Below, one piece after another: positions 45,241 through 61,542 of a stretch of DNA of 64,000 nt; within the stretch, counting starts at the first letter, position 1; every line of letters begins with the position of its first letter. The notes under the pieces are model-generated. The model searched no databases. It had not been told where the DNA came from and saw nothing but the letters and a program-made list of their open reading frames with translations. Made by a program: the position numbers and the translations under genes. Source of the stretch: Streptomyces sp. NBC_00878 (GTDB lineage: Bacteria > Actinomycetota > Actinomycetes > Streptomycetales > Streptomycetaceae); contig NZ_JAPEOK010000001.1 in NCBI RefSeq assembly GCF_026341515.1, positions 6,882,001-6,946,000 on the forward strand. Direction: 5' to 3'.

Positions 45241-46290
45241 TCAGGCGACCTTCTTGGCCTTCTCTATTGCCTCGGCGAGGTCGTTGAGCATGGGGGTGCA
45301 CTTGGCGTAGGAGAGGATCGGCTCGGGGGTGCGGGCGATGACCTGGCCGGCCTTGACCGCGGGGAGATTCTTCCAGGTCGCCTCGGTGATGTCGGCGGGC
45401 TGGATGGTCGCGGTGCGGTCGTCCATCATGATGATGTCCGCCGGGTACTTGTCGACGTTCTCCCAGCTCAGGTTCTCGAACCAGCCGCCGCTGGCCTTCA
45501 GGGTGTCGGCCGGGGGCTCGACGATGTTCACGCCGAGGGCCTTGAAGTACTCCAGGTCGACGGAGAGGTTCGAGCCGGAGACGTAGAAGATGTCCTGGCT
45601 CGCGGAGCCGATGAGAACCTTGATCTCCGGTCGGGCCTTGGCGGCCCTGCGCAGCCGCTCGGCGGCCGTCTCGAAGTCCGTCTTCGCCTCGACGGTCTTG
45701 GCGGCCTTCACGTCGGCGCCGAGCGACTCGGCGAGCGCGAGCATGCGCTCCAGCGGCTGGGGCAGCTGGCGGTCGTAGACGGAGAGGCCGACGCTCGGGG
45801 CGAGCTTGAGGATCTTGTCCTTGGACTCCTCGGGGACGTACCAGAGGGTGCCCGCGTCATCGAACATCGTGGTGATCAGGACGTCGGGAGCCAGGCCCGC
45901 GTACTTCTCGATGTTGAACTGGCCCCACTCGTTGCCGAGGATCGTCAGCTTGCTGATGTCCATGTCGCCGGCCTGGACATCGGCCTTGCCGTCCTTGGTC
46001 TTGGTCGGGCCGAAGACGCCCTTGACCTCGATGCCGTAGTCGAAGAGGGCGGCGGCGACACCGGTGAAGGCGACGATGTTGGCCGGAGCCTTGTCCAGCT
46101 TCACCGTCGTACCGCGGTCGTCCTCGAAGCTCCAGGGGCCGGCAGCGGCGGCGCTCTTCTTCGAGTCCGCCGAGCCACCGCTCTTCGAGTCTTCGTCACC
46201 GCAGGCGGCGAGCACGGCACCGAGGCCGAAAGCGCCTCCGGCGGCGAGGATGCCGCGGCGGGTGAGGTGGGTGGCACGGGCGTTGGACAT
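45241..46290 (-). CDS. desE: Ferrioxamine-binding lipoprotein
   Basis: The protein has 349 residues from ATG 46290. The signal sequence has a twin-arginine motif (LTRRGILAAGGAFG) and the lipobox VLAAC. The mature protein is a periplasmic-binding type III fold: NIVAFTGVAAALFDYGIEVK, YAGLAPDVLITTMFDDAG and DIIMMDDRTATIQPADITEA. It binds ferric desferrioxamines for import by an ABC transporter encoded elsewhere. It has its own iron box upstream and is the des gene closest to the accessory region. Confidence 0.93.
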   Translation of the reverse strand: MSNARATHLTRRGILAAGGAFGLGAVLAACGDEDSKSGGSADSKKSAAAAGPWSFEDDRGTTVKLDKAPANIVAFTGVAAALFDYGIEVKGVFGPTKTKDGKADVQAGDMDISKLTILGNEWGQFNIEKYAGLAPDVLITTMFDDAGTLWYVPEESKDKILKLAPSVGLSVYDRQLPQPLERMLALAESLGADVKAAKTVEAKTDFETAAERLRRAAKARPEIKVLIGSASQDIFYVSGSNLSVDLEYFKALGVNIVEPPADTLKASGGWFENLSWENVDKYPADIIMMDDRTATIQPADITEATWKNLPAVKAGQVIARTPEPILSYAKCTPMLNDLAEAIEKAKKVA

Positions 46291-46341
46291 GGCTTTGGCT
46301 GCTTTCGAACAGGGCGGATGACCCACTGGACAGTGCGGAAG

Positions 46342-46360
46342 GTAGGTTAGCCTAACCTCA
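46342..46360 (-). promoter_or_regulatory. Iron box before desE
   Basis: GTAGGTTAGCCTAACCTCA is a DmdR/DtxR-like palindrome with the TTAGGTTAG core, about 52 bp upstream of the desE start. The rest of the 338-bp gap between desE and the next gene (46291-46628) holds only the two promoter regions; no gene. Confidence 0.88.
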
Positions 46361-46628
46361 CCATTTGTCCAGAAGGCGGGTTCCACCTGCTGAAATGCCC
46401 GCGGTGGTCCGGGTCGACGCCTGCGAGTGGCGCGTGAGAGCCGGGTGGGCGGGGAAATCCGCGGCGTGATCTTTCGGTCAATGAGCCCCCGGTTCCTTGC
46501 GGTCGAAGCCCTTTTGGTCAGGCCTATTTGTCATTGACATGTGCGCACCATGGGTATGTAGGGTGCCTCAACGTGAACATCCCGTGACTTCCTGTTGGGG
46601 AATTCGTGGGATTCGGGGGAGGCACGGG

Positions 46629-49600
46629 GTGGGCTTGTCCATGTGGAAGAGCGGCAGCGGCAGAGCGTTTGTGACAGCGCTTTCGGTAGCGGTCGTCGGG
46701 GGTGTGCTGCCGGTGGCCGGGTTTGGCACTGCGGCTCATGCGGATGCGTCGTCGACGCAAAGAAATGTCGCGACGGGAAGTGTTCCGCAGGCGGCCCGAT
46801 CCGCGGCGGCGCAGGCGGCCGAGGCCGGGGAGCCCGTGGAGGTGCTCTACGAGCGCACCGAGTACTCGCAGGTGTTCGCCCAGCCGGACGGCAGTTTCAA
46901 ACTGAGCCAGTCGACCACTCCGCAGCGGGTCAAGGGTTCCGACGGATCTTGGCAGCCGGTCGACGTCACGCTGCAGAAGCGCGCGGACGGGCGCATCGCG
47001 CCGAAGAGCGCCGTAGTGGACCTGTCCTTCGCCGGCAAGGGCCCGGGTTCGGACATGATCCGCATCGGGGACCGTAAGGGGCATGTGCTCAGCCTGGGCT
47101 GGGACCGCGTACTTACGGAACCGCTCCTGGACGGGGACACCGCCACGTACCGCGAGGTGCTTCCTGGGGTCGACCTTCTGCTGACGGCGACGCCGGAGTC
47201 GTATCGCGAGGTGCTGGTGGTCAAGACACCGCAGGCGGCTACGAGTCCGGCGCTGGACAAGGTGGTCCTCGGCGTCGACGGTGAGGGGCTGGAAGTCCGG
47301 CCCAGCGCCGACGGCGGCCTGGTGGCGGCGAACGAGGACGGGGTGGAGGTCTTCACCGGGCCACCTGGGTTGATGTGGGACTCCGCCGGTGAGGCCGCCG
47401 AAGGTTCTGGTTCTCGGACCCTGATGGGCGGCAGTGCTGCCGCAGCCGAGGGCGAGGAGGGCGACCCGGCTGTCGGCCCCGGTAACGGTGCCGCTTCCGC
47501 AGTGATGCCTGTGCAGGTCGAGGGCGACAGCATCGCCATCGTGCCGGATGCCGGGATGCTGGAGGGGCCCGGCACTGTCTACCCGGTCTACATCGATCCG
47601 GCGGTCGGACTCGGGCACACGTACCGCACGGTTCTGTCTTCCGACGGCGACAGTTTCTGGAAGTTCGACGGAGCCGGATACGGCATCGGCCGGTGCGGCT
47701 CCAACTCCCAGGGCGCGTGTACCACCGGTGCCTGGTACACGAACCGGATGTACTTCCAGTTCAACTCCGCGAGTGCGCTGCGTGGCAAGTACGTGATCGA
47801 CTCGACGTTCCGGGCGTACGAGACGTGGTCGTTCGACTGCAACCCGGCCTGGGTGGACCTGGAGCGCACCGACGGAATCTCCTCGGGCAGCAAGTGGCCG
47901 GGCCCGGGCGGACCCAAGTCGGACAACAGCTGGGACCAGCTGGGAGACAAGTACGTAGCGGCGGGACGCGGCACCGCGTGTGCGCCGGAGCAGCCGAACG
48001 CGTGGATCGAGTTCAACGACAATCCGGACGAGCCGGATGAGAACCTCAACTCCACGGTGCGGAACTTTGCCGACGGCAGGATCGACAACCTGACGCTCAT
48101 GCTGAAAGCGAAGGACGAGTCGGACGTCACCGCCTGGAAGCGCTTCGACGACAACGCCGAACTCGAGGTGGAGTTCGCCTACCAACCCGGGGTGCCGACC
48201 CGGTATGGGATATGGCCGGGCAACATGGGCGGCGACCCGGACGACGTGCAGTGCTCCACCTCTTCCTCCAACCCGGTCATCGTCACCCGGGCTGAGCCGA
48301 ATGTGCAGGCGTCCGTGCAGACCAAGGTCGAGCACGGCGAGGGAAAGTCAGAAGGCCAGCTCCAGGCCGAGTGGGTGATGGAGCGTCGACAGGCCGACGG
48401 CACCTGGGTGAGCAGTTGGAGCGACTACAAACCCGACGACGGCTGGTCCCCTGACGGCACCGTGGAGACAGCGAAGGTCTCCCCGCGCACGGACAAGACG
48501 ACATACCGGGTCAAGGCCCGGACCCAGTCGCATTGGGCCTACGACACCAAGTCCGGAGACCTGTTCTCGTCCTACACCCCGTGGTGCTACTTCAAGGTCG
48601 ATGCCGATCGGCCACAAGCCCCCGTCGTGAGCGCCGTGCAGGGCGGCATCTACGCGCTCTGCGTCACGGAGGACTGCCCTGCCCAGGGCGGCCCCGGCAC
48701 CCGGGGCAAGCTGCACTTCGCTCAGAACTCCGCGGACACCGATGTCGTGAAGTACGAGTGGCGGCTGCCGGGAATGGCCAAGACCGAGTTCATCACCGGT
48801 GCCGGTGTGGACGAGGAGATCACGCCTTTGGTGGCGGGCCGCCAGACCCTGCAGGTCCGCGGCTGGGACGTCGGCGGCTCCGGTGAGTGGGCCTACGTCA
48901 AGATCAAGGTCGCAGCCGCGCAAGGCGTGCTCGGCCGCTGGCACTTCGACGACTTCCCGGCGGGCTCAGGCGAAAAACTGGCCAAGGACAGCGCGGTCGA
49001 AGGCGCTGTCCGCCACAACGCGACGATGTACACCGACGGCACAGGCTTCTCCTCGCTCGCACGTCGCGGAGACGCGGACCAGTCGCTGTGGCTGGACAGT
49101 ACCGACCCGGCCAAACAGCAGGGATATGCGGCCACTTCGACACCTGTTCTCAACACCAGTGACTCCTTCACCGTGTCGACCTGGGCGTATCTGACCGACA
49201 CCTCCGTCAACAGGGTGGTGCTGGCTCAGCCCGGCAGCGCGGCGAACGCCTTCACGCTGTACTACTCGACCGCCCTCAAGGCATGGGTGTTCAACCGCAC
49301 CGACCAGGACAAGACGAGCCCGGTCTACATCCGCTCCGTCGCCGACCAGCAGAATCCTCAGCTGAAGGTGTGGACGCACTTGGCGGGCGTCTTCAAGACC
49401 GAGGGCGATGACGGTATCCCGGACACCGATCCGACGAACGACACGATCCAGTTGTTCGTCAATGGCCGGCCCCAGGGGCAGCCGGTGAACTTGGCCGGCG
49501 CGGCCTCCACTTACCAACCCTGGTCGGCCTCCGGCGGTCTGCAGTGGGCGCGTTCGGTCAAGGCGGGTGCGGGTCAGGAATTCTTCCGAGGCCGCCTGGA

Positions 49601-50432
49601 TGAGACGGCGGTGTGGCAACGTTCCCTGACCGAGGCGGAGATACGCCTGGAAGGCACGCTCCAGGAGAACGAGGCCGCCGCGACGGAACTGATGGCGGAA
49701 TGGGACGCCTCCACCTCGACGGGCACCGCACTGGCGGAGAAATCGGGCTACCCCTTCCCGGGAATGACACTTGCCGGCAATGCCAAACTCGGGGAAAACC
49801 CGCAACTGCTGACACTGGACGGTGCCAACAGTTACGCCACCACCACCGGACCAGCGGTCGATGAGACCGGTTCCTTCACTGTCAGCGCGCTGACCCGGGC
49901 AGATTCCGCCAAGCTGATCGGCAAGGCCGACGGCTACACCATGAGCGTCGCCAAGCAGAAGATCGGCAATGAGGCGTCGTGGGCCCTGAAGCTGGTCAAA
50001 CTGGCCGACGACATCGACGGTGACGGCAAACCCGAATGCCTCTGGCGTTTCGAGCGCACCAAGGTCGACGCCACGGGGAAGAAGACCGCAACGACGCAGG
50101 TGTCGGCCACCGCTGTGGCGATCCTTGACGAACTCGTGCATGTCACCGGCGTGTACAACGCGGCCGAGGCGTTCGACGACGGCGACGCCACCCGGTTCGG
50201 CACACTGCACCTCTTCGTCGGCGCCGACGAGCAGGCGGACGAAGCGACCGAGCCGAACTTCGCCGATCCGCAGCAGGGCACCGGCGAGCTCGCCATCGGC
50301 CGTGGCCACAGCAACGGCACACCTGGCGAATACCTGCCCGGTGCGGTGGAGGACTTGCGCATCTGGACCGGAGCCATGGAGAGCCGTCAGATCGCCGAGC
50401 GAGTCCTTGGCGAGGCGACGCCCACCGGCTGA
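46629..50432 (+). CDS. Large secreted protein with two LamG-like domains
   Basis: The protein has 1267 residues from GTG 46629, chosen because GGGGGAGG lies 6 nt upstream. A Sec signal peptide (AFVTALSVAVVGGVLPVAGF) ends near AAHADA. The first 700 residues are beta-rich with Cys and Trp (MYFQFNSASALRGKYVIDST; SYTPWCYFKVD). Two LamG/concanavalin-like domains follow: the first about residues 765-1010 (GRWHFDDFPAGSGEK; SFTVSTWAYLTDTSVNRVVL; RLDETAVWQRSLTEAEI), the second about 1015-1262 (AEWDASTSTGTALAEKSGY; AVEDLRIWTGAMESRQI). It precedes the RHS protein by 101 bp and is probably co-exported as a surface partner. It starts an accessory region absent, from memory, in S. coelicolor. Confidence 0.8.
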   Translation: MGLSMWKSGSGRAFVTALSVAVVGGVLPVAGFGTAAHADASSTQRNVATGSVPQAARSAAAQAAEAGEPVEVLYERTEYSQVFAQPDGSFKLSQSTTPQRVKGSDGSWQPVDVTLQKRADGRIAPKSAVVDLSFAGKGPGSDMIRIGDRKGHVLSLGWDRVLTEPLLDGDTATYREVLPGVDLLLTATPESYREVLVVKTPQAATSPALDKVVLGVDGEGLEVRPSADGGLVAANEDGVEVFTGPPGLMWDSAGEAAEGSGSRTLMGGSAAAAEGEEGDPAVGPGNGAASAVMPVQVEGDSIAIVPDAGMLEGPGTVYPVYIDPAVGLGHTYRTVLSSDGDSFWKFDGAGYGIGRCGSNSQGACTTGAWYTNRMYFQFNSASALRGKYVIDSTFRAYETWSFDCNPAWVDLERTDGISSGSKWPGPGGPKSDNSWDQLGDKYVAAGRGTACAPEQPNAWIEFNDNPDEPDENLNSTVRNFADGRIDNLTLMLKAKDESDVTAWKRFDDNAELEVEFAYQPGVPTRYGIWPGNMGGDPDDVQCSTSSSNPVIVTRAEPNVQASVQTKVEHGEGKSEGQLQAEWVMERRQADGTWVSSWSDYKPDDGWSPDGTVETAKVSPRTDKTTYRVKARTQSHWAYDTKSGDLFSSYTPWCYFKVDADRPQAPVVSAVQGGIYALCVTEDCPAQGGPGTRGKLHFAQNSADTDVVKYEWRLPGMAKTEFITGAGVDEEITPLVAGRQTLQVRGWDVGGSGEWAYVKIKVAAAQGVLGRWHFDDFPAGSGEKLAKDSAVEGAVRHNATMYTDGTGFSSLARRGDADQSLWLDSTDPAKQQGYAATSTPVLNTSDSFTVSTWAYLTDTSVNRVVLAQPGSAANAFTLYYSTALKAWVFNRTDQDKTSPVYIRSVADQQNPQLKVWTHLAGVFKTEGDDGIPDTDPTNDTIQLFVNGRPQGQPVNLAGAASTYQPWSASGGLQWARSVKAGAGQEFFRGRLDETAVWQRSLTEAEIRLEGTLQENEAAATELMAEWDASTSTGTALAEKSGYPFPGMTLAGNAKLGENPQLLTLDGANSYATTTGPAVDETGSFTVSALTRADSAKLIGKADGYTMSVAKQKIGNEASWALKLVKLADDIDGDGKPECLWRFERTKVDATGKKTATTQVSATAVAILDELVHVTGVYNAAEAFDDGDATRFGTLHLFVGADEQADEATEPNFADPQQGTGELAIGRGHSNGTPGEYLPGAVEDLRIWTGAMESRQIAERVLGEATPTG

Positions 50433-50533
50433 CCGACCATGCGAGCGGCAGCCGAATCCGGCACGAACACCGCTCACTCCGGCACACAGGCAACCGAACA
50501 GATCCCTGCACACGGATGCGGGTGGGTCACACG

Positions 50534-53500
50534 ATGACGATGGGGCGGAAACGGGCAATGAGGGCTGCACACCGAGTAGGACGGCGACGCTGGATGGGGC
50601 GTGCGGCCGCGGTTCTGTCGTTGGCCATGCTGCCGGGGCTGCTGGCTCCCATCGAGTACCGAGCCGAGGCTCAGGACAAGGGCCTCGGCCGACCGGATCT
50701 GCCCGCCCCTCGCGAAGCCGACCTGCGGCCTGTCGCCACCGAGCCGGACAAGAAGAGTGCCGCTGCACTGAAGAAGGCGGAGGCCGCCGACAAGGCCGCG
50801 GCCGGACGGGCGCGCGACCAGCAGGCGGTGAAGCCCGCATGGCCGAAGCCAGGGACCGTCACGGTCGACGTACCGACCACCGGCACCACGCGCGTCACAG
50901 CCGGATCCCTGCCCATCACCATCGCCGCCCCCAAGTCCGGGCGCACCAAGGCAGCCGACGCGGTGACCCTCACGGTCCTCAACCGGAAGACGGCTCAAGC
51001 GGCCGGCGTCGACGGAGTGCTGCTCACCGCCCAGGGCAAACACAAGGGCGCCGCTCGCCTGACGGTGGACTACCGCAAGTTCGCCGCCGCGGGCGGGGAC
51101 TTCGGCGGCCGGCTCCGCCTCGTGCAGCTGCCCGCGTGTGCCTTGACCACACCCGACAAGCGTGTCTGCCGCGTCCAGACGGAGCTCGTCTCCTCCAACG
51201 ACCCTCGGGCCGCCGCGGTGGCGGGAGACATCACGCTGGCTCAGCCGTCGGCCTCGAACGCCGATCGGCCCACGGCCGCCAGCACAGCCACCACGCGCCA
51301 GGCGACCGTGCTCGCCGTCACGGCAGGCGCCTCCTCAGGGCTGGGCAACTACAAGGCCACTCCGCTGTCGGCCTCCTCCACCTGGGAAGCCGGTGGCTCG
51401 TCCGGCTCGTTCAGCTGGAGTTACCCGTTCGGCGTGCCCGCCCCGGCGGCCGGACCCGGCCCGGATCTGGCCCTCTCCTACGACTCCAGCAGTGTGGACG
51501 GCCGGACCGCCAACACCAACAACCAGGGCTCCCTCGTCGGAGAGGGCTTCGATCTCACCTCCTCCTACATCGAGCGCAAGTACCACTCGTGCGACGACGA
51601 CGGCCAGACCGACAAGTTCGACCTGTGCTGGAAGTACACCAACGCCTCGATGGTGCTCAACGGCAAGGCCTCCGAACTGGTCAAGGACGACACCAGCGGT
51701 GAGTGGCGGCTGAAGAACGACGACGCGTCCAAGGTCGAGCACCTGACCGACACGGCTCTCGAGAACGGCGACAGCAGTGGCGAGTACTGGCGGGTGACGA
51801 CGGGCGACGGCACCAGGTACACCTTCGGCCTGCACAAGCTGCCCGGCGCCCCGAGCGGCGAGCGCACCAACTCCGTGTGGACCGCGCCGGTATTCGGAGA
51901 CGACGAAGGCGAGCCGGGGTACGCCGGTGGCACCACCTTCGCCGGGCGATGGGACGTCCAGGCCTGGCGCTGGAACCTCGACATGGTCGAGGACACTTAC
52001 GGCAACGCCATGACCTACTGGTACGCCACGGAGAAGAACTTCTACGCCAAGAACGGTGTCGATTCCCCGGGCACGGAGTACGTCCGTGGCGGTTACTTGA
52101 AGGAGATCCGTTACGGCCAGCGCGCCGGTGCACTGTTCAGTGCTACCCCGGCGGCCTCGCACAAGGTCACGTTCCCGGTCGCGGAGCGCTGCCTGGCGGC
52201 GTCTTCGGGCTGCGACAGCTTGGACGAGGCGCACCGCACCAACTGGCCAGACGTGCCCTACGACGCGATCTGCAAGGAGGGGGACGCCTGTACCGGCCTG
52301 GGCAGCCCCACGTTCTTCACCCGCAAGCGGTTGACCGCAGTCGAAACGTACTTCTGGAACACGAAGCTGACCACCCCGGCCTTCGACCAGGTCGACTCCT
52401 GGAAGCTCAAGCACCTCTATCTGGATCCGGGCGAGGTCGGCGACTCGTCGGACCAGTCGCTGTGGCTGGACGAGATCCAGCGCACGGGAACCTACGGCAC
52501 CGACATCGCGCTGCCCGCCGTCAAGTTCGGCCACCAGATGTTCAAGAACCGCGTGGACGGTACGGGCGACAACATCCTGCCGCTGGGCAAGCCGCGACTG
52601 TCCACGATCGTCTCCGAAACCGGCCAGCAGACCACTGTCAGCTACCTGCCCGCCGAGTGCACGGCCGGTATGACCAAACCGGCGGAGGACAAGAACACCA
52701 AGCGCTGCTACCCGGTGTACTGGTCGCCCAACGGGGGCTCCGTCCCCCAGCTCGACTGGTTCCAGAAGTACCCCGTCTCGGATGTGCGCCTCGGCTCCAT
52801 CTACGGCGGCACCCTGGCCGTCAACCACCACTACGACTACTCCGGCGGCGGTGCGTGGCACTACAACGACGACCCCATGACCGTGGAGAAGGAACGCACC
52901 TGGTCCGTCTGGCGCGGCTTCGAGAAGGTCACGCGCACCATTGGTGACGACACCGGACCGAAGTCCAAGGACGTCACCGTCTTCCTGCGCGGCATGCACG
53001 GCGACAAGCAGAAGGACGGCTCCACCCGCACGGTGGAGGTCACAGGGATCAAAGCCCCGAAGATCACCGACCTGGATCGCTACGCAGGTGTCACCCGAGA
53101 GCAGGTCACCTACGACGGCGGCGAGGAGGTCTCCGGGAAGGTCAGCGACCCCTGGTCGAAGAAGACCGCCACGCAACACAAGTCGTACGCCGACACCGAG
53201 GCCTACTACGTCCGCACCGAGGCCGGCCACGCCCGCACCCGGGTGACCTCGGGCGGCGCCGCCACGGACAGGACGCGCACCACCCGGACGACCTTCGACG
53301 ACTACGGCATGCCTCTCACGGTGGAGGACTCCGGTACCGAAGCTTCCGGCGACGAGGTCTGCACGCGAACCTGGTACGCCCGCAACACCACCGCAGGGCT
53401 CACCGCGCTGGTCTCCCGTGAGCAGATGGTTGCCAAGGCGTGCAGCGTGGCCACGGGCCTGCTCGACCTTCCGGCCGACGATTCCCGTCCCGGCGATGTG

Positions 53501-56500
53501 ATCGCCGACACCGCCACCGCGTACGACACCACCACATGGTCGGCCGCTCAGTCGCCCACCAAGGGTGAGGTGCGGTGGATCGGTCGGGCCAACGGATATG
53601 ACGCCTCGGACAATCCGGTCTGGCAGAAGGTGACCGCGACCGACTACGACACCCTCGGTCGCGCGACCCTGGTCTCGAACAACATCGGGAGCAGCACCCG
53701 GACCACCTACACTCCTGCGGCTGCCGGCCCGCTGACCCAGACCGAGGTGGTCAACGCCAAGCAGCACAAGGCCATCACGGTGATGGACGCCGGCCGGGGC
53801 CTTCCGCTGAAGACCACCGATCCCAACAACCGCATTACCGAGCAGAGTTACGACAGCCTCGGCCGGATGACCGAGGTGTGGCTGCCGAACCGGTCCCGTG
53901 CCCTGAGCCAGGGCGGCAACTACAAGTTCGGCTACAGCATCTCGAGCACCGCCCCTTCGTGGCTCTCGACATCGACGCTGGGCAGGACCCAGTACAACAC
54001 CAGCTACGAGATCTTCGACGCGCTTCAGCGACCACGCCAGACACAGGCGCCCTCCCCGCGAGGAGGCAGGGTCGTCAACGAGACCATGTACGACGATCGC
54101 GGCCTGGCGGTCGAGACCAACGCCGACCTCTGGGACTCCACCGCTCCGTCAGGCGAGTTGGTCGGCACGGCGGGTGGGTCCGCGCCGCTGCACACCGACA
54201 CGAGCTTCGACGGCACCGGTCGGTCGACCCAGGTGGTGACCAAGACCTACAACACCACACGCTGGACCACCAGCAGCAGCTACACCGGAGACTCCGTCAC
54301 CACCACCGCGCCGGCCGGCGGCAACGCCGTGACCGTGCTGAGCAATCTGCTCGGACAGGTCACCGAGCGACGCGAGTACCCCAACCCCACCGCGACCGGC
54401 ACGCCGGCCACCACCAAGTTCACCTACGCCCCCGGCGGCCAGACGAAGACGATGACCGGGCCGGACGACAAGCAGTGGTCCTACGGCTACGACCTCATGG
54501 GGCGTCGAACCACCACCACCGACCCGGACAGTGGCATCACAAGGTCCACGTACACCAGCCTGGATCTGCTCGACACCAGTAGAGACGCCGAACAGCGAAA
54601 GCTGATCTACGGCTACGACGAGCTCGGCCGCAAGACGGACCTGTGGCAGACCGAGAAGACCGACGCCAACAAGCTCGCCAACTGGACCTTCGACACGGTC
54701 ACGAACGGCAAGGGCTACCCGGCCGCCGCCACGCGCTACGTCGGCGGCAAGGCCTACACACAGAGGGTCACCACCTACAACAGCCTCTACCAGCCCCTGT
54801 CCTCCGAACTGCAGCTGCCCGCGGCGGCCGACGAGCCGCTCGTCGCGGCGGGGGTGCCGCAGACCCTGAAGTTCGAAACCGCCTACAACGTCGACGGCAC
54901 TGTGCAGTACACCCGCGAGCCGGTCGTGGCCGGCATGCCCGCCACGGGCACGCAGGCCTACGAGCAGATCGACTACACGTACAACACCCTGGGCATGCCC
55001 AACACGGCCAAGGGCGTGACCGGTTATCTGCTGGGCACCACGTACACGCCCGTCGGCCTGCTGGAGCAGCAGACCCTGGGCAGCGACTCGGCGGGCAAGA
55101 AGGTCTATGTCGCCAACCAGTACGAGGACGGCACGCGCCGCCTGACGGAGTCGGACGTCACCACCGACACCCACAGCTACATGGTGCAGGACCTCAAGTA
55201 CTCCTACGACGCCGTGGGCAACGTCACCGCGGTGTCCGACACCGCCACCTGGCAGGGCACCTCACAGGCGGATCACCAGTGCTTCGCGTACGACGGTCAC
55301 CGCCGCCTCACGGAAGCCTGGACCCCGAAGACCGCGGACTGTTCGAGCTCCGGCCGCAGCACTTCCAACTTGGGGGGTGCAGCGCCCTATTGGTCCAGCT
55401 ACACGTACAACAACGCGGGCCAGCGCAAGACCGAGACCCAGCACGGCCTTTCGGGTGACACTGAGATCACCTCGACCCACGGCACAACCACCGGGCAGCC
55501 GCACCCTCTGACGAAGACCGAAACGAAGGTCCCGGGAAGCTCGACTCCGACCACGCACGACTACAAGTACGACGCCACGGGCAACACCACCAGCAGGCCG
55601 GGCACCAAGGCGACGCAGACTCTGGCCTGGAACAGCGAAGGCCGACTCGCCGAAACCAGCGAGCCCGCAGCCGAATCCCAGCCGGCCACCGGCACCAAGT
55701 ACGTCTACGACGCGGACGGCGAGCTCCTCATCCGCCGCGCCGCCACCACCGATGGCGAGACGGTCCTGTACCTCGGCGCCACGGAGGTGAAGCTCTCGGT
55801 CTCGGGCGGCGGCAAGGACAAGGCACTCTCAGGCACCCGCTATTACGCGGGAGGCGCCGTACGAACCGTCGGCGCGGGCAAGAATGAACTCACCTTCCAG
55901 GCGGGTGACCACCACGGCACCATGAGCCTGAGCGTAAAGGCGGATGCCACCCAGACGGCAACCCGCCGCTACCTCACACCGTTCGGAGGTCCACGCGGCA
56001 ACGAGCCCACCACCTGGCCGGACGACAAAGCCTTCCTCGGAAAGCCCGCTGACGAGACAACCGGCCTGACCCATGTCGGGGCTCGCGAATACGACCCTGC
56101 CATCGGCCAGTTCATCAGCGTCGACCCCGTCCTCGACGGCAACAACGCCTGGTCCCTCAACGGCTACAGCTACGCGAACAACAGCCCCATCACTCAGTCG
56201 GACCCGAGCGGTCTGTACTGCGACGGCTGCAGTGTGAACAACCCCGGCTCGGCCTGGAAGCCGGAGAACGGCCCGGGATGCACGCACAACGCGTGCTACG
56301 ACCACGATGGGAAAGTCGAGTACGCGATCAGCCACGGTGGTGGTGGCACGGGTGGCAACAGTGTCGGCAACAGCGGCGGTGGCAACTCAAGCAAGCAACC
56401 TGAGATCGTCCCCGGGGTGGCCATTCCCACGGAGGAAGATCTCCGGAACCGTGGGTACGACCCATTGAAGAACCAGACGTATTCCCAGCTTCTCGTGAAG

Positions 56501-57529
56501 TGGTCGGACAGTAAGTGTCTAAGTGACCCGGCTGGCGACGCCTGCAAAGCGCTCAATGCTCTGGGGTGGGTCAGCCCGACGCAGGACTTCCTGGAGTTCA
56601 TCGGCGTACGCGACGCCATCGACTGCGCCAAGGGAAGCGTCAGCGGCTGCGTGTGGACGGCAGTGGGGCTGCTGCCGGTGGGGAAGCTCGCCAAGGCGGC
56701 GAAACTCGTCAAGAGCGGCGACAATGCAGCCGCCGCGGCAATGGCTTGCGTGAGGAGGAGTTTCCTCCCCGGCACTCAGGTACTCATGGCCGACGGCAGT
56801 ACCAAGAACATCGAGGACCTACGGGTCGGTGACGAAGTCTTGGCGACGGATCCTGAGACGGGGAAGACGGCGCCGCAAGAGGTGACCGCCGCACTCTTGA
56901 GCGAAGGAGTCAAGGATCTAGTAAAGATCGCTATCGAAGATGAACGGGGCAGTCGGCAGACGGTAACCGCCACCGACAATCATCCCTTCTGGGTCATAGA
57001 CCTGGGCCAGTGGGTGGATGCTCGTGACCTCAAACCTGGTCAGAGGCTCCGTACCTCCGCGGGCACCCCAGCTCAGGTCGAGGCCATCCAGCGCTGGACC
57101 CAGATCGCTCGTGTGCACAACCTGACCGTTGACGAACTGCACACGTACTATGTGCTGGCGGGACCCACCTCGGTTCTCGTTCACAATTCCGGGGGTGGCG
57201 GAAGCAACCCGTGGGCGAATGCGCACGAGTGGCCGACCGGGCAGAAGTTTCCGACGGGCGGAGACACCCGGGGTGCTGTCTCCGGACCGTCGAACGGGAT
57301 TCTTTACCGAACCGGTGTGAATGGTGAGATAACGAACTACTCCGTCTATGACGAGAGTGGGATAATCTTGAGGAGGGTGGACCTCGTCGGAGAATCTCAC
57401 AAGGGTGTTGATACTCCGCACGTCCAGGAATTCCACCGAAACCAGACTCCCGACGGCAGGGTCTTCCCGTACCAGGGGCAGACCGCCCGTCCGACGGGTC
57501 CGGACGACCTCCCGCCCATGGGGTGTTGA
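50534..57529 (+). CDS. RHS/YD-repeat polymorphic toxin with pretoxin Hint domain
   Basis: The protein has 2331 residues from ATG 50534 (GGGTGGG upstream; ATG 50516 is an alternative). A signal peptide (MGRAAAVLSLAMLPGLLAP) leads to a long beta-rich N-part and many YD repeats (YDSLGRMTEV, YDLMGRRTTT, YDELGRKTDL, YDAVGNVTAV). The RHS core is at about residues 1845-1895 (HVGAREYDPAIGQFISVDP). A Hint domain starts at C2072 (CVRRSFLPGTQVLMADGS) and ends VHN at H2217-N2218, with TATDNHPFWV between. The last 113 residues, after the likely cleavage point, are the toxin tip, with GESHKGVDTPHVQEFHRN and PDGRVFP; from memory this resembles domains called polymorphic toxin type 24. GC falls in this tip. 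The next gene is its likely immunity. Confidence 0.85.
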   Translation: MTMGRKRAMRAAHRVGRRRWMGRAAAVLSLAMLPGLLAPIEYRAEAQDKGLGRPDLPAPREADLRPVATEPDKKSAAALKKAEAADKAAAGRARDQQAVKPAWPKPGTVTVDVPTTGTTRVTAGSLPITIAAPKSGRTKAADAVTLTVLNRKTAQAAGVDGVLLTAQGKHKGAARLTVDYRKFAAAGGDFGGRLRLVQLPACALTTPDKRVCRVQTELVSSNDPRAAAVAGDITLAQPSASNADRPTAASTATTRQATVLAVTAGASSGLGNYKATPLSASSTWEAGGSSGSFSWSYPFGVPAPAAGPGPDLALSYDSSSVDGRTANTNNQGSLVGEGFDLTSSYIERKYHSCDDDGQTDKFDLCWKYTNASMVLNGKASELVKDDTSGEWRLKNDDASKVEHLTDTALENGDSSGEYWRVTTGDGTRYTFGLHKLPGAPSGERTNSVWTAPVFGDDEGEPGYAGGTTFAGRWDVQAWRWNLDMVEDTYGNAMTYWYATEKNFYAKNGVDSPGTEYVRGGYLKEIRYGQRAGALFSATPAASHKVTFPVAERCLAASSGCDSLDEAHRTNWPDVPYDAICKEGDACTGLGSPTFFTRKRLTAVETYFWNTKLTTPAFDQVDSWKLKHLYLDPGEVGDSSDQSLWLDEIQRTGTYGTDIALPAVKFGHQMFKNRVDGTGDNILPLGKPRLSTIVSETGQQTTVSYLPAECTAGMTKPAEDKNTKRCYPVYWSPNGGSVPQLDWFQKYPVSDVRLGSIYGGTLAVNHHYDYSGGGAWHYNDDPMTVEKERTWSVWRGFEKVTRTIGDDTGPKSKDVTVFLRGMHGDKQKDGSTRTVEVTGIKAPKITDLDRYAGVTREQVTYDGGEEVSGKVSDPWSKKTATQHKSYADTEAYYVRTEAGHARTRVTSGGAATDRTRTTRTTFDDYGMPLTVEDSGTEASGDEVCTRTWYARNTTAGLTALVSREQMVAKACSVATGLLDLPADDSRPGDVIADTATAYDTTTWSAAQSPTKGEVRWIGRANGYDASDNPVWQKVTATDYDTLGRATLVSNNIGSSTRTTYTPAAAGPLTQTEVVNAKQHKAITVMDAGRGLPLKTTDPNNRITEQSYDSLGRMTEVWLPNRSRALSQGGNYKFGYSISSTAPSWLSTSTLGRTQYNTSYEIFDALQRPRQTQAPSPRGGRVVNETMYDDRGLAVETNADLWDSTAPSGELVGTAGGSAPLHTDTSFDGTGRSTQVVTKTYNTTRWTTSSSYTGDSVTTTAPAGGNAVTVLSNLLGQVTERREYPNPTATGTPATTKFTYAPGGQTKTMTGPDDKQWSYGYDLMGRRTTTTDPDSGITRSTYTSLDLLDTSRDAEQRKLIYGYDELGRKTDLWQTEKTDANKLANWTFDTVTNGKGYPAAATRYVGGKAYTQRVTTYNSLYQPLSSELQLPAAADEPLVAAGVPQTLKFETAYNVDGTVQYTREPVVAGMPATGTQAYEQIDYTYNTLGMPNTAKGVTGYLLGTTYTPVGLLEQQTLGSDSAGKKVYVANQYEDGTRRLTESDVTTDTHSYMVQDLKYSYDAVGNVTAVSDTATWQGTSQADHQCFAYDGHRRLTEAWTPKTADCSSSGRSTSNLGGAAPYWSSYTYNNAGQRKTETQHGLSGDTEITSTHGTTTGQPHPLTKTETKVPGSSTPTTHDYKYDATGNTTSRPGTKATQTLAWNSEGRLAETSEPAAESQPATGTKYVYDADGELLIRRAATTDGETVLYLGATEVKLSVSGGGKDKALSGTRYYAGGAVRTVGAGKNELTFQAGDHHGTMSLSVKADATQTATRRYLTPFGGPRGNEPTTWPDDKAFLGKPADETTGLTHVGAREYDPAIGQFISVDPVLDGNNAWSLNGYSYANNSPITQSDPSGLYCDGCSVNNPGSAWKPENGPGCTHNACYDHDGKVEYAISHGGGGTGGNSVGNSGGGNSSKQPEIVPGVAIPTEEDLRNRGYDPLKNQTYSQLLVKWSDSKCLSDPAGDACKALNALGWVSPTQDFLEFIGVRDAIDCAKGSVSGCVWTAVGLLPVGKLAKAAKLVKSGDNAAAAAMACVRRSFLPGTQVLMADGSTKNIEDLRVGDEVLATDPETGKTAPQEVTAALLSEGVKDLVKIAIEDERGSRQTVTATDNHPFWVIDLGQWVDARDLKPGQRLRTSAGTPAQVEAIQRWTQIARVHNLTVDELHTYYVLAGPTSVLVHNSGGGGSNPWANAHEWPTGQKFPTGGDTRGAVSGPSNGILYRTGVNGEITNYSVYDESGIILRRVDLVGESHKGVDTPHVQEFHRNQTPDGRVFPYQGQTARPTGPDDLPPMGC

Positions 57530-57590
57530 TGCAACAGTTCGTGGTTGTGTCGTCAAGCAAGCGAGCTCTAGACCAAAGAGAGTCAACGTA

Positions 57591-58034
57591 ATGGATCCGC
57601 GAGGGTTGCCGCAGTTGTCGGAGTGGGTGACCGGCGCTGAGGCCGACGGGTACCACCTCCAGGGCTTCATGTCTGCCAACGTCTCAGTGGCTGAGGCTGC
57701 TGCTCTGGCGGACTTGTACTGGCCGAAGCTCGTTGAATACCGTGACCGTGTATTCCTCGGCTTCAAGTTCGACGGAAAATCGGTCGATGACTGGTACGGC
57801 CGTCTGTCAGGTGATTGGCGGGCAGTCGAATCGGTAGTGAACCATGTCCACTTGTGGGACTACTTTGTGATCACTTTGGAATCGGAGTACGCCGCACTCC
57901 CCGAACTGGCGGAGAATATTGCCGTCATGTGGCGAGCGGCGGTACAGAAGGCTTTCCCTGGCCGGGAGTTCGAGATCACCGTCTCGGACGGATCCGGTGG
58001 CTATGGCCCGACGTTGCGACTCACTGGCAGCTGA
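57591..58034 (+). CDS. Putative immunity protein of the RHS toxin
   Basis: The protein has 147 residues from ATG 57591, with AAAGAGAG upstream. It is small, acidic and soluble (LPQLSEWVTGAEADGYHLQG, WRAVESVVNHVHLWDYFVIT, IAVMWRAAVQKAFPGREFEI). It has no signal peptide, as expected for a cytoplasmic immunity protein against an RNase-like tip. It starts 61 bp after the toxin gene, and its codon use is less GC-biased than the RHS body. Family not recognised; immunity is inferred from position, size and composition. Confidence 0.6.
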   Translation: MDPRGLPQLSEWVTGAEADGYHLQGFMSANVSVAEAAALADLYWPKLVEYRDRVFLGFKFDGKSVDDWYGRLSGDWRAVESVVNHVHLWDYFVITLESEYAALPELAENIAVMWRAAVQKAFPGREFEITVSDGSGGYGPTLRLTGS

Positions 58035-58212: not shown

Positions 58213-58932
58213 ATGTATGCGCGCGTGCCACGGTTCATCCGAGTCATGCTTATCTTGGCGACTGGGACACTCGCTGCCGTCGCGTGTTCCTCGAGTACTG
58301 ATGCACGGAAAGTGGATGGGTCTGGGAAGTCGACCGCGTCTGCCGAGGATTCTCTGGTGCCACTCACGAAAGCGCAGTTGAAGGCGCTCACCTTCAAGGA
58401 GAGTGAGGTCCCGCAGGTGCGAGAGGGCGGGATCGTCCTACAGGAATTCGAAACGAAGAGCGGTAGGCCTTCGTTCCCACCGGTTTCTGACCCTTCCTGT
58501 AATGTGATGGTCGATATTCGAATCGGTGAGAATGCATCAGTCGTTGTTTCTCAGTCCTTCGACTGGGAGGGAGACATCTATGCAGGCTCCTCGATCATTG
58601 CATCGTATGAACAGGGTGAAGCGCGCAAAGTCTTTGCCGAACTCGAACAGGCGCTTGGTGCGTGCCGCTCCTACTCGGGCGGAAACTATGCAGGAAAATT
58701 CAAGGCAGCGGTCAAGGTGGAGAAGGACCCGAATGTGGGAGACGAAGCCGCGCGTTTCCGGGAAATCGTCCCCATAAAGGACTTGGGAGACCGGGATATG
58801 GAGTTCACCCTGGTTCGGTCCGGGAATGTGATCGTGACCTTTCAGAGGATGAATATCGGGCGCAGCTCTTCCTTCCCTGAAGAACTGATTGGCAAGCAAG
58901 TGGAGCGTCTGCATGAAGCGCAACGCAAGTGA
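58213..58932 (+). CDS. Lipoprotein of unknown function
   Basis: The protein has 239 residues from ATG 58213 with GGAGAG upstream. A signal peptide with a lipobox-like VAC (LAAVACSSSTDARK) suggests a lipidated Cys at about residue 24. The mature part has two more Cys (DPSCNVMVDI, ALGACRSYSGG), which could pair, and a fold reminiscent of extracellular PknH-like sensor domains; that is weak. It shares the lower GC of the immunity gene and may be a second, extracytoplasmic protective or unrelated cargo gene. Confidence 0.6.
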   Translation: MYARVPRFIRVMLILATGTLAAVACSSSTDARKVDGSGKSTASAEDSLVPLTKAQLKALTFKESEVPQVREGGIVLQEFETKSGRPSFPPVSDPSCNVMVDIRIGENASVVVSQSFDWEGDIYAGSSIIASYEQGEARKVFAELEQALGACRSYSGGNYAGKFKAAVKVEKDPNVGDEAARFREIVPIKDLGDRDMEFTLVRSGNVIVTFQRMNIGRSSSFPEELIGKQVERLHEAQRK

Positions 58933-59221: not shown

Positions 59222-60073
59222 TCAGATGCTCTTGGCGATGGTGTCGATGAGGTCGTGGGAGGCGGCGGGCTTCAGGGTGGCCTGCTCCATGCGGTCCAGG
59301 ATGAGCCGGTACGTCTCCAACTTCCCTGCCGCATCAATCAGTTCGCTGCCGTGGCTGGTGTCCAGCTGGGCGGTGTCGAGGGCGGTCACCGGTCCGCTGG
59401 CGTAGTCGAGGCCGTGGCCGGCGGTTGGGAACGACGTGCCGCCGAAGGGGATGACGCGCAGGCTGATGTTCGGTTGTTCGCCGACTTCGGCGAGGTGCCG
59501 CAGTTGGGCTCGGGCCACCTCTCGGCCGCCGAACTGCATGCGCAGGGCCGCTTCGTGGATGATCGCGGTGTACGGCACTGGGTTGTCACGAAACAGGACG
59601 GCCTGGCGTTTGATGCGGTGGGAGATGTAGTGCTCGATTTCGTGGGGTCGCAGGGCCGGGACCACTTCGCGGAAGAGTGCGCGGGCGTGATCGGGTGTCT
59701 GGAGCAGGCCGGGGATGTTGATGACCTGGGCAACGCGTAGTGCGGTGGCGTGGTGCTCCATCTCGGCCAAGTCGAGGAGGGGGGACGGAAGTGTGTCGCG
59801 GTACTCCTCCCACCAGCCGCGCGTGCGGTTCGCCGCCATGTCCGCGAGGGCGTCGACCAGCGGCTCGTCCGCGCAGCCGTAGATATGGGCGAGCGTGCGT
59901 ACGCGTTCCCCGCTCACGCCGAAGCGGTTGGCCTCGATATTGCTGATCTGAGCTTGCGTGGTACCCAGCGAGCGGGCGGCCTGCACGGCGGTCATGCCCG
60001 CCCGCTCGCGCAGCCGGCGCAGCTCGGTGCCGATACGGAGACGGCGAGCTGTGGGGGTGCTCCGTGGTGCCAT
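59222..60073 (-). CDS. XRE-family regulator with DUF5753 domain (WhiJ-like)
   Basis: The protein has 283 residues from ATG 60073. The helix-turn-helix (about 12-65) reads ELRRLRERAGMTAVQAARSL and AQISNIEANRFGVS. The DUF5753 region has WWEEYRDTLPSPLLDLAEME, INIPGLLQTPDHARALF and AIIHEAALRMQFGG. A perfect 17-bp inverted repeat starts 52 bp upstream (60125-60166) and is the likely operator. Divergent GHKL ATPase and DUF397 neighbours repeat the arrangement at 13.5-15.3 kb. Confidence 0.86.
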   Translation of the reverse strand: MAPRSTPTARRLRIGTELRRLRERAGMTAVQAARSLGTTQAQISNIEANRFGVSGERVRTLAHIYGCADEPLVDALADMAANRTRGWWEEYRDTLPSPLLDLAEMEHHATALRVAQVINIPGLLQTPDHARALFREVVPALRPHEIEHYISHRIKRQAVLFRDNPVPYTAIIHEAALRMQFGGREVARAQLRHLAEVGEQPNISLRVIPFGGTSFPTAGHGLDYASGPVTALDTAQLDTSHGSELIDAAGKLETYRLILDRMEQATLKPAASHDLIDTIAKSI

Positions 60074-60124
60074 GTCCTCGCTCCGTTTCGTACATCTGAC
60101 GTGGCGGTCACCCACACAGGGCAA

Positions 60125-60166
60125 ATCCCTGAAGGTTTTGCATCTTCAAGCAAAACCTTCAGGGAT
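60125..60166 (+). promoter_or_regulatory. Perfect 17-bp inverted repeat (operator)
   Basis: ATCCCTGAAGGTTTTGC (60125-60141) and its exact complement (60150-60166) surround ATCTTCAA. The element is far less GC-rich than its surroundings and lies between divergent XRE and ATPase genes. A repressor binding site is more likely than a terminator here. Confidence 0.75.
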
Positions 60167-60323
60167 CGCAGTCTACGGTGAGACCCGAACCGCTCCACCA
60201 CCCCCGCCGGTAAGCCGGAAGTGCACCACGTACGTGCCTGTACGTGGCACCGCCACCGTCACCGCCCGGTCGAGGCGTCGAGTGAGTCGAATGAAGCAAG
60301 TCCCCCCACCGCAGGAGGCTTTC

Positions 60324-60821
60324 ATGGTCACCGTATCCCCGCCGTCCCTGCTGGAGTGTGAAGCGGACCCGACTTGGGTGTACGTCCTCCAGCTGCCCCA
60401 CGATCCCCGCGCCGCCCGTATCGCCCGCATCACCCTCCGGGCCGTGCTCGCCGGGCACGGCCTGGCGCAACTCGTTGACGTCGCAGAGCTGTTGGCCTCC
60501 GAGCTTGTCACCAACGCCTACCGCCACTCCACCGGCCCCTCCGCCCTCCGCCTCCGCGGCCTGGGTGGCGGTCGGCTGCGGGTGAGTGTCTGGGATGCCA
60601 ACCCTCACATCCCGCCCCCGTTCGACAAGCGCTCAGGACCGTTGCGCCCCGCGCCTGTGCCGGTGGAGGCCGACGGTGGGCGTGGGCTGTTTCTCGTATG
60701 CCATTTCGCGGACGCGTGGGGCGGATATCCGCTCGGAGACGATCTCTTCGGGACGAGCGGGAAGATGCTGTGGTGCGAGCTGGGGGTGCCGGTGGCTGAT
60801 CGTGCTGGAGCCGCCGCGTGA
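60324..60821 (+). CDS. GHKL-type ATP-binding regulator (RsbW-like)
   Basis: The protein has 165 residues from ATG 60324 behind AGGAGG. The N-box LLASELVTNAYRHSTG (about residues 55-70), G1-like VSVWDANP (about 82-89) and G2-like EADGGRGLFLVCHFADAWGG (about 114-133) mark an anti-sigma-type ATPase. It is regulated together with the divergent XRE gene through the palindrome at 60125. The partner sigma factor or target is unknown. The Uma2 gene follows by 95 bp. Confidence 0.8.
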   Translation: MVTVSPPSLLECEADPTWVYVLQLPHDPRAARIARITLRAVLAGHGLAQLVDVAELLASELVTNAYRHSTGPSALRLRGLGGGRLRVSVWDANPHIPPPFDKRSGPLRPAPVPVEADGGRGLFLVCHFADAWGGYPLGDDLFGTSGKMLWCELGVPVADRAGAAA

Positions 60822-60915
60822 CGGCAGAGCGGCCGGTGATCAAGCGGCGGGCGGCCAAGATGGCCCCGCGCTATCGTGGAAGCGCGACACGCTCTGTAAC
60901 CAGCGGAGGACCGTG

Positions 60916-61542
60916 GTGACCACCATGACCGAGCGCCCGACGGCCATAGACGCCTCTCCGGCCGGAGCTTTCGAGGACATGCTCCGAATCGTCGAGGAGC
61001 TGGACACACCTGACGGCTACAAGGCCGAACTCATCCGGGGGAAGATCATCGTGTCGCCGTGGTCGAAGCTGCGCTACAAGAAGGTGATGAAGTCACTGCG
61101 GCTGCAGTTGCAACCCCATGCCCCGGAGGGTCACGACGTCGACGTAGCGCCGTTTCTCTTCACCTTCCCCGGCTCCGAGCGGGGCTTCGGCCCTGATCTG
61201 CACGTCGCCGACGAGACTGCCTTCGACGTCGATGGCCGACATGCCGATGGTGCCGCTCTGTCCCTCGCCGCGGAGCTGACGTCCGACTCCACCAAGGACG
61301 CCGACTGGCTCGACAAGCTGGACACGTACGGTCGGGTCGTGCCCGTGTATCTGGTGCTCGACATGCAGGTCCAGGAGGTCACAGCCTTCTGGGATCCGTC
61401 TTCGAAGGGCTATCGGTCCCGGCACTGCGTTCCCTTCGGTGAGCCGCTGCACGTGCCCGCGCCCTTCGACTTCGAGCTGGACACGTCCGGGTTTTTCGTC
61501 CGCGCGAATGACGCGAAAGAAGAGAACACGCGGGATGCGTGA
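60916..61542 (+). CDS. Uma2 family protein (PD-(D/E)XK fold)
   Basis: The protein has 208 residues from GTG 60916 with GGAGGA 5 nt upstream; ATG 60925 is also possible. Uma2 features are visible: YKAELIRGKIIVSP, GFGPDLHVADE (Asp), then LAAELTSDSTKDADWLDKLD with E, S and K, and VPVYLVLDMQVQEVTAF. The fold is that of PD-(D/E)XK nucleases, but the role of Uma2 proteins in actinobacteria, often found in many copies, is unknown. It ends the accessory region; the next genes are core metabolism in the opposite direction. Confidence 0.8.
   Translation: MTTMTERPTAIDASPAGAFEDMLRIVEELDTPDGYKAELIRGKIIVSPWSKLRYKKVMKSLRLQLQPHAPEGHDVDVAPFLFTFPGSERGFGPDLHVADETAFDVDGRHADGAALSLAAELTSDSTKDADWLDKLDTYGRVVPVYLVLDMQVQEVTAFWDPSSKGYRSRHCVPFGEPLHVPAPFDFELDTSGFFVRANDAKEENTRDA

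What the first reader, a model, noticed from the sequence alone, without database searches (positions are those of the whole stretch)
46629..58034. Polymorphic toxin locus: LamG partner, RHS-Hint protein with type-24-like tip, putative immunity
The sequence shows signal peptide, YD repeats, RHS core, Hint domain (C2072 to H2217-N2218), a separate 113-residue tip and a small cytoplasmic-type gene next to it. These are the established parts of polymorphic toxins. In a Gram-positive sporulating host without a visible type VI system here, delivery must differ (surface-anchored, WapA-like), and the adjoining LamG protein may be part of it.
Basis: partly seen in the sequence, partly recalled or inferred. 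Interest (0 to 1): 0.75.

Follow-up and report, generated by a model that had tools for sequence, protein, structure and literature searches.

The report
Polymorphic RHS toxin with unnamed immunity
A Streptomyces chromosome carries a secreted RHS toxin with an exchangeable type-24 tip, a tightly linked LamG partner gene, and, next to the tip, a small gene of an unnamed family that follows this tip in several bacterial groups and is therefore very probably its antidote.

Summary
ORF 50516-57529 (2337 aa) has a signal-peptide-like N-terminus, YD repeats, an RHS core, a pretoxin Hint domain and a 113-residue tip matching Ntox24 (PF15529, 53 bits, cut-off 24). What goes beyond the finding: (1) The 147-aa gene at 57591-58034 matches no family in Pfam, NCBIfam, PADLOC or PHROGs, yet relatives lie directly behind the Ntox24 tip in 14 of the 15 Ntox24-bearing genomes among 295 of the genus, own genome included, and behind 17 of 25 tip loci in a wider scan, 13 of 21 without loci used in building the profiles. 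It is probably the cognate immunity family. (2) The LamG gene is followed by the RHS gene in 27 of 30 loci, own included. (3) None of 12 sister loci has this tip; two of them share about 83% of the YD region. In a near relative the tip was replaced at the end of Hint, leaving the old immunity gene. This is a new member of a known kind. RNase activity and delivery remain inferred.

The parts
46629..50432 (+). LamG partner protein with signal-peptide-like N-terminus; start 46629 (GTG) or 46641 (ATG)
   Evidence: Laminin_G_3 1.9e-28, two stretches; weak DNRLRE match, 21 bits, below the cut-off of 34; RHS gene directly downstream in 27 of 30 loci, own included
50516..57529 (+). RHS-Hint-Ntox24 toxin, 2337 aa
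55976..56215 (+). RHS core (residues 1821-1900) with predicted self-cleavage residues R1857, D1870 and PxxxxDPxG (P1891, D1896)
   Evidence: TIGR03696 62.6 bits; residue positions; motif as described in PMC13018210
56759..57187 (+). Hint domain, S2082 to N2224
   Evidence: PT-HINT 87.1 bits; intein_Nterm offset; comparison of 18 Hint termini
57188..57526 (+). Ntox24 toxin tip, 113 residues (Pfam match 57281-57475)
   Evidence: PF15529 53.4 bits, cut-off 24; Y51 and H71 invariant, H78 nearly so in 13 aligned tips
57591..58034 (+). putative immunity gene, 147 aa, unnamed family
   Evidence: relatives next to Ntox24 tips; no family match
57187..57376 (+). stretch (first 63 tip residues) that is replaced in the near relative G128 by another tip and a 155-aa ORF
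   Evidence: blastn homology stops at 57186 and resumes at 57377; frames listed

Best explanation
The locus is a secreted antibacterial polymorphic toxin system. The RHS protein and its LamG partner leave the cell by the Sec route (inferred from the N-termini by eye). The YD repeats form a shell round the C-terminus (inferred from known RHS structures). The RHS core site (R1857, D1870, D1896) and the Hint domain (S2082, H2223-N2224) each cut the chain (motifs shown, cleavage inferred) and free a 113-residue Ntox24 tip. The LamG protein helps docking on the producer's surface or on the target (linkage shown, role inferred). In the target's cytoplasm the tip cuts RNA without a metal; this follows the 2012 prediction for Ntox24, whose conserved Y, H and H are present here (residues shown, activity inferred). 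The acidic 147-aa product of the next gene binds the tip and protects producer and kin (linkage shown, binding inferred). New tips arrive by recombination at the end of Hint together with a new neighbour gene, and old immunity genes can stay behind (seen in one near relative).
For: Domains above cut-offs. Tip to neighbour-gene linkage: tblastn with P0003 alone finds a relative at 13 of 14 other Ntox24 loci of the genus, 12 at E<1e-4 and one at 0.018; family in 26 of 295 genomes, 14 shared with Ntox24 (Fisher p 4e-16, with a profile partly built from these loci); 17 of 25 loci of the wider scan, 13 of 21 without re-used loci. Truncated Ntox24 remnants upstream of three of the 12 copies without a Pfam-detected tip and an Imm50 gene beside another. 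Tip exchange: 12 sister loci, none with this tip, and the G128 replacement with the old immunity gene kept at 93% identity, dN 0.032, dS 0.130. LamG linkage 27 of 30. Tip and immunity gene have GC 62.5% and 59.9% against 68.7% for the window, which fits recent arrival.
Against: Nothing was tested in a cell. Linkage with the wider family is not total: 8 of 25 loci lack the gene, one of them at a contig end; some have HEAT-repeat or Imm53 neighbours, and G050 has a weak Ntox24 match without it. Nine of the 12 copies of the gene without a Pfam-detected tip have no clear tip remnant. The tip model is only moderate (pLDDT 73.6) and matches no known RNase fold. No anchor was found, so the docking step is open.
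Confidence: 0.85

Rival explanations
1. Polymorphic toxin with cognate immunity as above, but the Ntox24 tip is not an RNase and acts on another target.
For: The RNase claim is a 2012 prediction (PMC3482391, passages); the searches gave no experiment on Ntox24. The predicted all-beta model matches no RNase structure.
Against: The conserved Y, H, H pattern fits metal-independent RNases. A missing structural match at pLDDT 73.6 says little.
Confidence: 0.35
2. The 147-aa gene is not an antidote but an export chaperone, activator or regulator of the toxin.
For: It is always read together with the tip, which a dedicated chaperone would be too; no binding is shown.
Against: It follows the tip and not the chassis: loci with the same chassis and other tips have other neighbour genes, and it accompanies tips on quite different proteins. 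It is kept in G128 after the tip was replaced. Copies occur beside Imm50.
Confidence: 0.08
3. The locus is decaying and no longer makes an active toxin.
For: The near relative G128 has a broken chassis: a deletion across the LamG-RHS boundary and an insertion with transposase-like frames.
Against: In the window the frames are open and the motifs are in place.
Confidence: 0.07
4. The toxin is delivered by a contractile injection system rather than released or displayed through Sec.
For: Three Phage_sheath_1 matches exist elsewhere in the genome.
Against: They lie megabases away; the RHS protein starts with a signal-peptide-like stretch (by eye) and no PAAR or similar domain was found; no T6SS VipA.
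Confidence: 0.05

Closest known systems
Polymorphic toxins of the Zhang et al. 2012 catalogue with RHS repeats, HINT and Ntox24 (PMC3482391)
   Same: RHS repeats, HINT protease and Ntox24 tip; the catalogue lists Ntox24 in actinobacteria with HINT and RHS
   Different: The catalogue gives Imm50 and Imm53 as Ntox24 partners; the neighbour here matches neither
WapA of Bacillus subtilis (features recalled; listings)
   Same: Sec-type, Gram-positive RHS toxin with exchangeable tip and adjacent immunity gene
   Different: No wall-binding domain found by Pfam; the LamG part is a separate protein here
Bacterial teneurin-like proteins (PMC13018210; abstract and Results parts 1-2 of 3 seen)
   Same: YD shell, DPxG-type core cleavage site, small C-terminal toxin, downstream immunity gene
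   Different: No NHL match in Pfam at E<=1; a Hint domain lies between core and tip
Streptomyces umbrella toxins (PMC11062931, PMC13274773; search listing only)
   Same: Secreted Streptomyces polymorphic toxins with lectin parts
   Different: Other scaffold (recalled); the LamG role here is only inferred

Membership tests
Ntox24 (PF15529) | Profile match above the curated cut-off | tested here: met
   53.4 bits, cut-off 24
Ntox24 (PF15529) | All-beta domain with conserved Y, H, H | tested here: met
   Y51 and H71 invariant, H78 nearly invariant in 13 aligned tips; all-beta core in a moderate model
Ntox24 (PF15529) | RNase activity (predicted) | not testable with these tools
   prediction in PMC3482391 only
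Pretoxin Hint | PT-HINT profile, nucleophile, TxxH, C-terminal HN | tested here: met
   87.1 bits; S2082, H2156, H2223-N2224
Polymorphic toxin systems | Conserved chassis with exchangeable tips | tested here: met
   15 tips compared, one related pair; chassis identities
Polymorphic toxin systems | Cognate immunity gene next to the tip | tested here: inconclusive
   linkage strong; protection not tested
Imm50 or Imm53 | Match to PF15594 or PF15580 | tested here: not met
   no match for P0003 at E<=1 nor for 22 aligned relatives; both models ring on other proteins
WapA | Cell-wall-binding N-terminus (recalled) | tested here: not met
   none in Pfam at E<=1 in P0001 or P0002
T6SS Rhs effector | T6SS in the genome | tested here: not met
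   no VipA match in the genome
Teneurin-like proteins | FN-plug, NHL and YD shell | tested here: inconclusive
   YD part present, no NHL match in Pfam at E<=1; the paper's own profiles were not available

The most novel reading that the evidence does not exclude
The LamG and RHS genes make one two-protein secreted particle in which the LamG protein is the recognition part for target-cell glycans, and the following gene founds a new immunity family with a fold of its own that is dedicated to Ntox24 across several phyla.
Probability: 0.3. Interest if true: 0.7.

Novelty: new member of a known kind. Interest (0 to 1): 0.5.

Why it matters
It pairs a widespread toxin domain, for which the searches gave no experiment, with an unnamed candidate immunity family, so both can be tested together. 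The LamG-RHS gene pair recurs in Streptomyces (27 of the 30 best loci) and gives a concrete lead on how Gram-positive RHS toxins without an injection machine reach their targets. The replaced tip in G128 shows the exchange point at the end of Hint directly.

Tried and rejected

Results that do not fit neatly: G050 (L019) has a weak Ntox24 match without the neighbour gene. At G264 (L018) both tip and neighbour are only partial matches. Of the 12 copies of the gene without a Pfam-detected Ntox24, three have a clear tip remnant (L054, L059, L061), L043 a weak one (E 0.036), and eight none (L055-L058, L060, L062-L064). Six of the 12 sister loci have no Hint match, and L131 and L132 have shortened RHS frames.
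Full report
What is there. The window lies in an 11.1 Mb genome. The named ones among 16 homologues of the small gene are Streptomyces, so I take the host to be a Streptomyces. Three genes follow one another on the + strand: a LamG protein (ORF 46497-50432, start probably 46629 or 46641), an RHS protein (50516-57529) and a 147-aa protein (57591-58034), with gaps of 83 and 61 nt. The RHS protein matches YD repeats, the RHS core (TIGR03696), PT-HINT (PF07591) and Ntox24 (PF15529) above their cut-offs; the LamG protein matches Laminin_G_3 with two stretches.

Processing sites. The RHS core carries R1857, D1870 and P1891xxxxD1896PSG, the layout that PMC13018210 describes for the self-cleaving core (abstract and Results parts 1 and 2 of 3 seen). 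The Hint domain begins at S2082, not at the cysteine four residues upstream: the intein profile begins at 2083 on position 2, and in 18 related Hint domains picked by a pattern that admitted only C or S, the residue is S in 11 and C in 7. TDNH and the final HN are present. Two self-cleavages are thus predicted; neither is shown.

The tip. Zhang et al. 2012 (PMC3482391, passages) describe Ntox24 as all-beta with Y, H, H, a possible metal-independent RNase, also found in toxin-antitoxin pairs. In 13 aligned tips Y51 and H71 are invariant and H78 nearly so. The AlphaFold model has an all-beta core (mean pLDDT 73.6, core blocks 80-90) and matches no solved structure convincingly. In the held papers the name Ntox24 occurs only in the 2012 paper; the accession PF15529 occurs in a table of a Pseudomonas CDI paper, there labelled Toxin_49, and in its correction (passages).

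The small gene. P0003 matches nothing in Pfam or NCBIfam at E<=1, nor in PADLOC or PHROGs. For 22 aligned relatives the best Pfam and NCBIfam E-values are 0.014 and 0.067, in scattered families. One homologue bears a newer Pfam accession, PF27221, that I could not look up. Yet the gene follows Ntox24. In 295 genomes of the genus Ntox24 occurs in 15. With P0003 alone, tblastn finds a relative at 13 of the 14 other loci, 12 at E<1e-4 and one at 0.018. A profile finds the family in 26 of 295 genomes, 14 of them shared with Ntox24 (Fisher p 4e-16; the profile was partly built from these loci). In 396 genomes of the phylum, Ntox24 occurs in three, one of them outside the genus, and that one has the gene too.

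Wider scan. In the collection of 84,980 species, 25 tip loci were found, and 17 of them have the gene 20-85 nt after the tip match, at E 5.7e-9 or better. The positives include Micromonospora, Amycolatopsis, Spirillospora, Agromyces, Moraxella, Polyangiaceae and Armatimonadota records. Of the other eight, L082 ends at the tip; L067 and L069 have a HEAT-repeat gene (L069 below the cut-off) and L090 an Imm53 gene; L071 looks by eye like L067; L087, L088 and L089 have neighbours I could not classify (L087 and L088 were not scanned). The scan started from tips of which most were known to have the gene, so it favours such tips. Ntox24 has several alternative partners; the one in the window is the commonest among its nearer relatives.

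Orphan copies. Of the 12 family members of the genus scan without a Pfam-detected Ntox24, three (L054, L059, L061) have a truncated Ntox24 remnant just upstream, a fourth (L043) only a weak one, and eight none; L037 (the G241 copy) lies beside an Imm50 gene (70.5 bits). Tip and immunity similarities correlate over 17 non-redundant pairs (r 0.59, permutation p 1e-4), though shared ancestry is not removed. The protein is acidic (pI 4.7; range of 22 aligned members 4.2-4.9). Its model is confident (pLDDT 90.4, pTM 0.83) but without a clear structural relative.

Tip exchange. Twelve sister loci with LamG halves 44-82% identical were read. None has the window's tip: among 15 tips (window, 12 sisters, two other RHS-Hint loci of the same genome) only L129 and L133 are alike at E<=0.01. 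L124 and L125, with about 83% identity in the YD region, have unrelated tips. Of ten sister tips scanned, L124 matches NERD just over its cut-off, L129 a toxin deaminase and L132 a papain-fold toxin; seven match no toxin family at E<=0.01 (L131 and L133 not scanned). Only six of the 12 loci have a Hint match.

The replaced tip. In G128, a near relative (91-94% DNA identity over three stretches of the chassis, 85% downstream), homology with the window stops at 57186, at the end of Hint, and resumes at 57377 inside the tip. Between them lie another tip, with a weak partial Ntox43 match (E 0.035, below cut-off), and a 155-aa ORF. Whether that tip is intact I did not settle. The old immunity gene remains, 93% identical, with dN 0.032 and dS 0.130. 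The G128 chassis is broken by a deletion across the LamG-RHS boundary and by an insertion with transposase-like frames (IS3-like, recalled).

The LamG partner. A search with its C-terminal part gave matches at E<=1e-10 in 75 of 150 genomes. Of 30 loci fetched from the best matches, own locus included, 27 have the RHS N-terminus directly downstream on the same strand. Of the other three, L098 and L116 stop at a contig end, and in L108 the LamG match is split by about 3 kb. Among the eight full-chassis loci first read (window, L045-L051 without L050) the partner is missing in L045 and divergent in L049. A 3529-aa Streptomyces protein unites LamG-type domains, an RHS part of another kind (23% identity) and the same Hint-tip unit (59% over 259 residues) in one chain. 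The LamG protein is therefore part of the system. Its role in docking is inference, as no anchor was found.

Delivery. The genome has no T6SS VipA match and has three Phage_sheath_1 matches far from the locus. Sec export is read from the N-termini by eye; no signal-peptide predictor was offered.

Verdict. The finding is right in substance. Chassis, Hint and tip are known kinds. The unnamed candidate immunity family and the conserved LamG-RHS gene pair are the parts that I did not find described in the searches, most of whose hits I saw as listings only.

Noticed in passing
58213-58932 (+): Lipoprotein-like gene (P0004) after the immunity gene, no family match, GC 56%; kept at 84% identity beside the immunity gene in G128 but not seen at the other Ntox24 loci compared.
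   Followed up: partly
L045 and L046 (G000:C1:1677500-1693500 and 4007500-4023500): Two further RHS-Hint toxin loci of the same genome with other tips.
   Followed up: partly
L037 (G241:C9, match at 218913): The unnamed gene lies beside an Imm50 gene, probably an array of immunity genes.
   Followed up: partly
L067, L069, L071: Ntox24 tips in Nocardia and Jidongwangia are followed by HEAT-repeat genes, possibly another kind of Ntox24 immunity (L071 by eye only).
   Followed up: no
G000:C1:9355653-9357294 and 8797689-8798171: Phage_sheath_1 matches, possibly a contractile injection system and a phage-like element.
   Followed up: no
45241-46386 (-) and 59222-61542: Periplasmic binding protein upstream of the locus; HTH/DUF5753 regulator, histidine-kinase-type ATPase and Uma2 genes downstream.
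   Followed up: no
[not shown]
   Followed up: no
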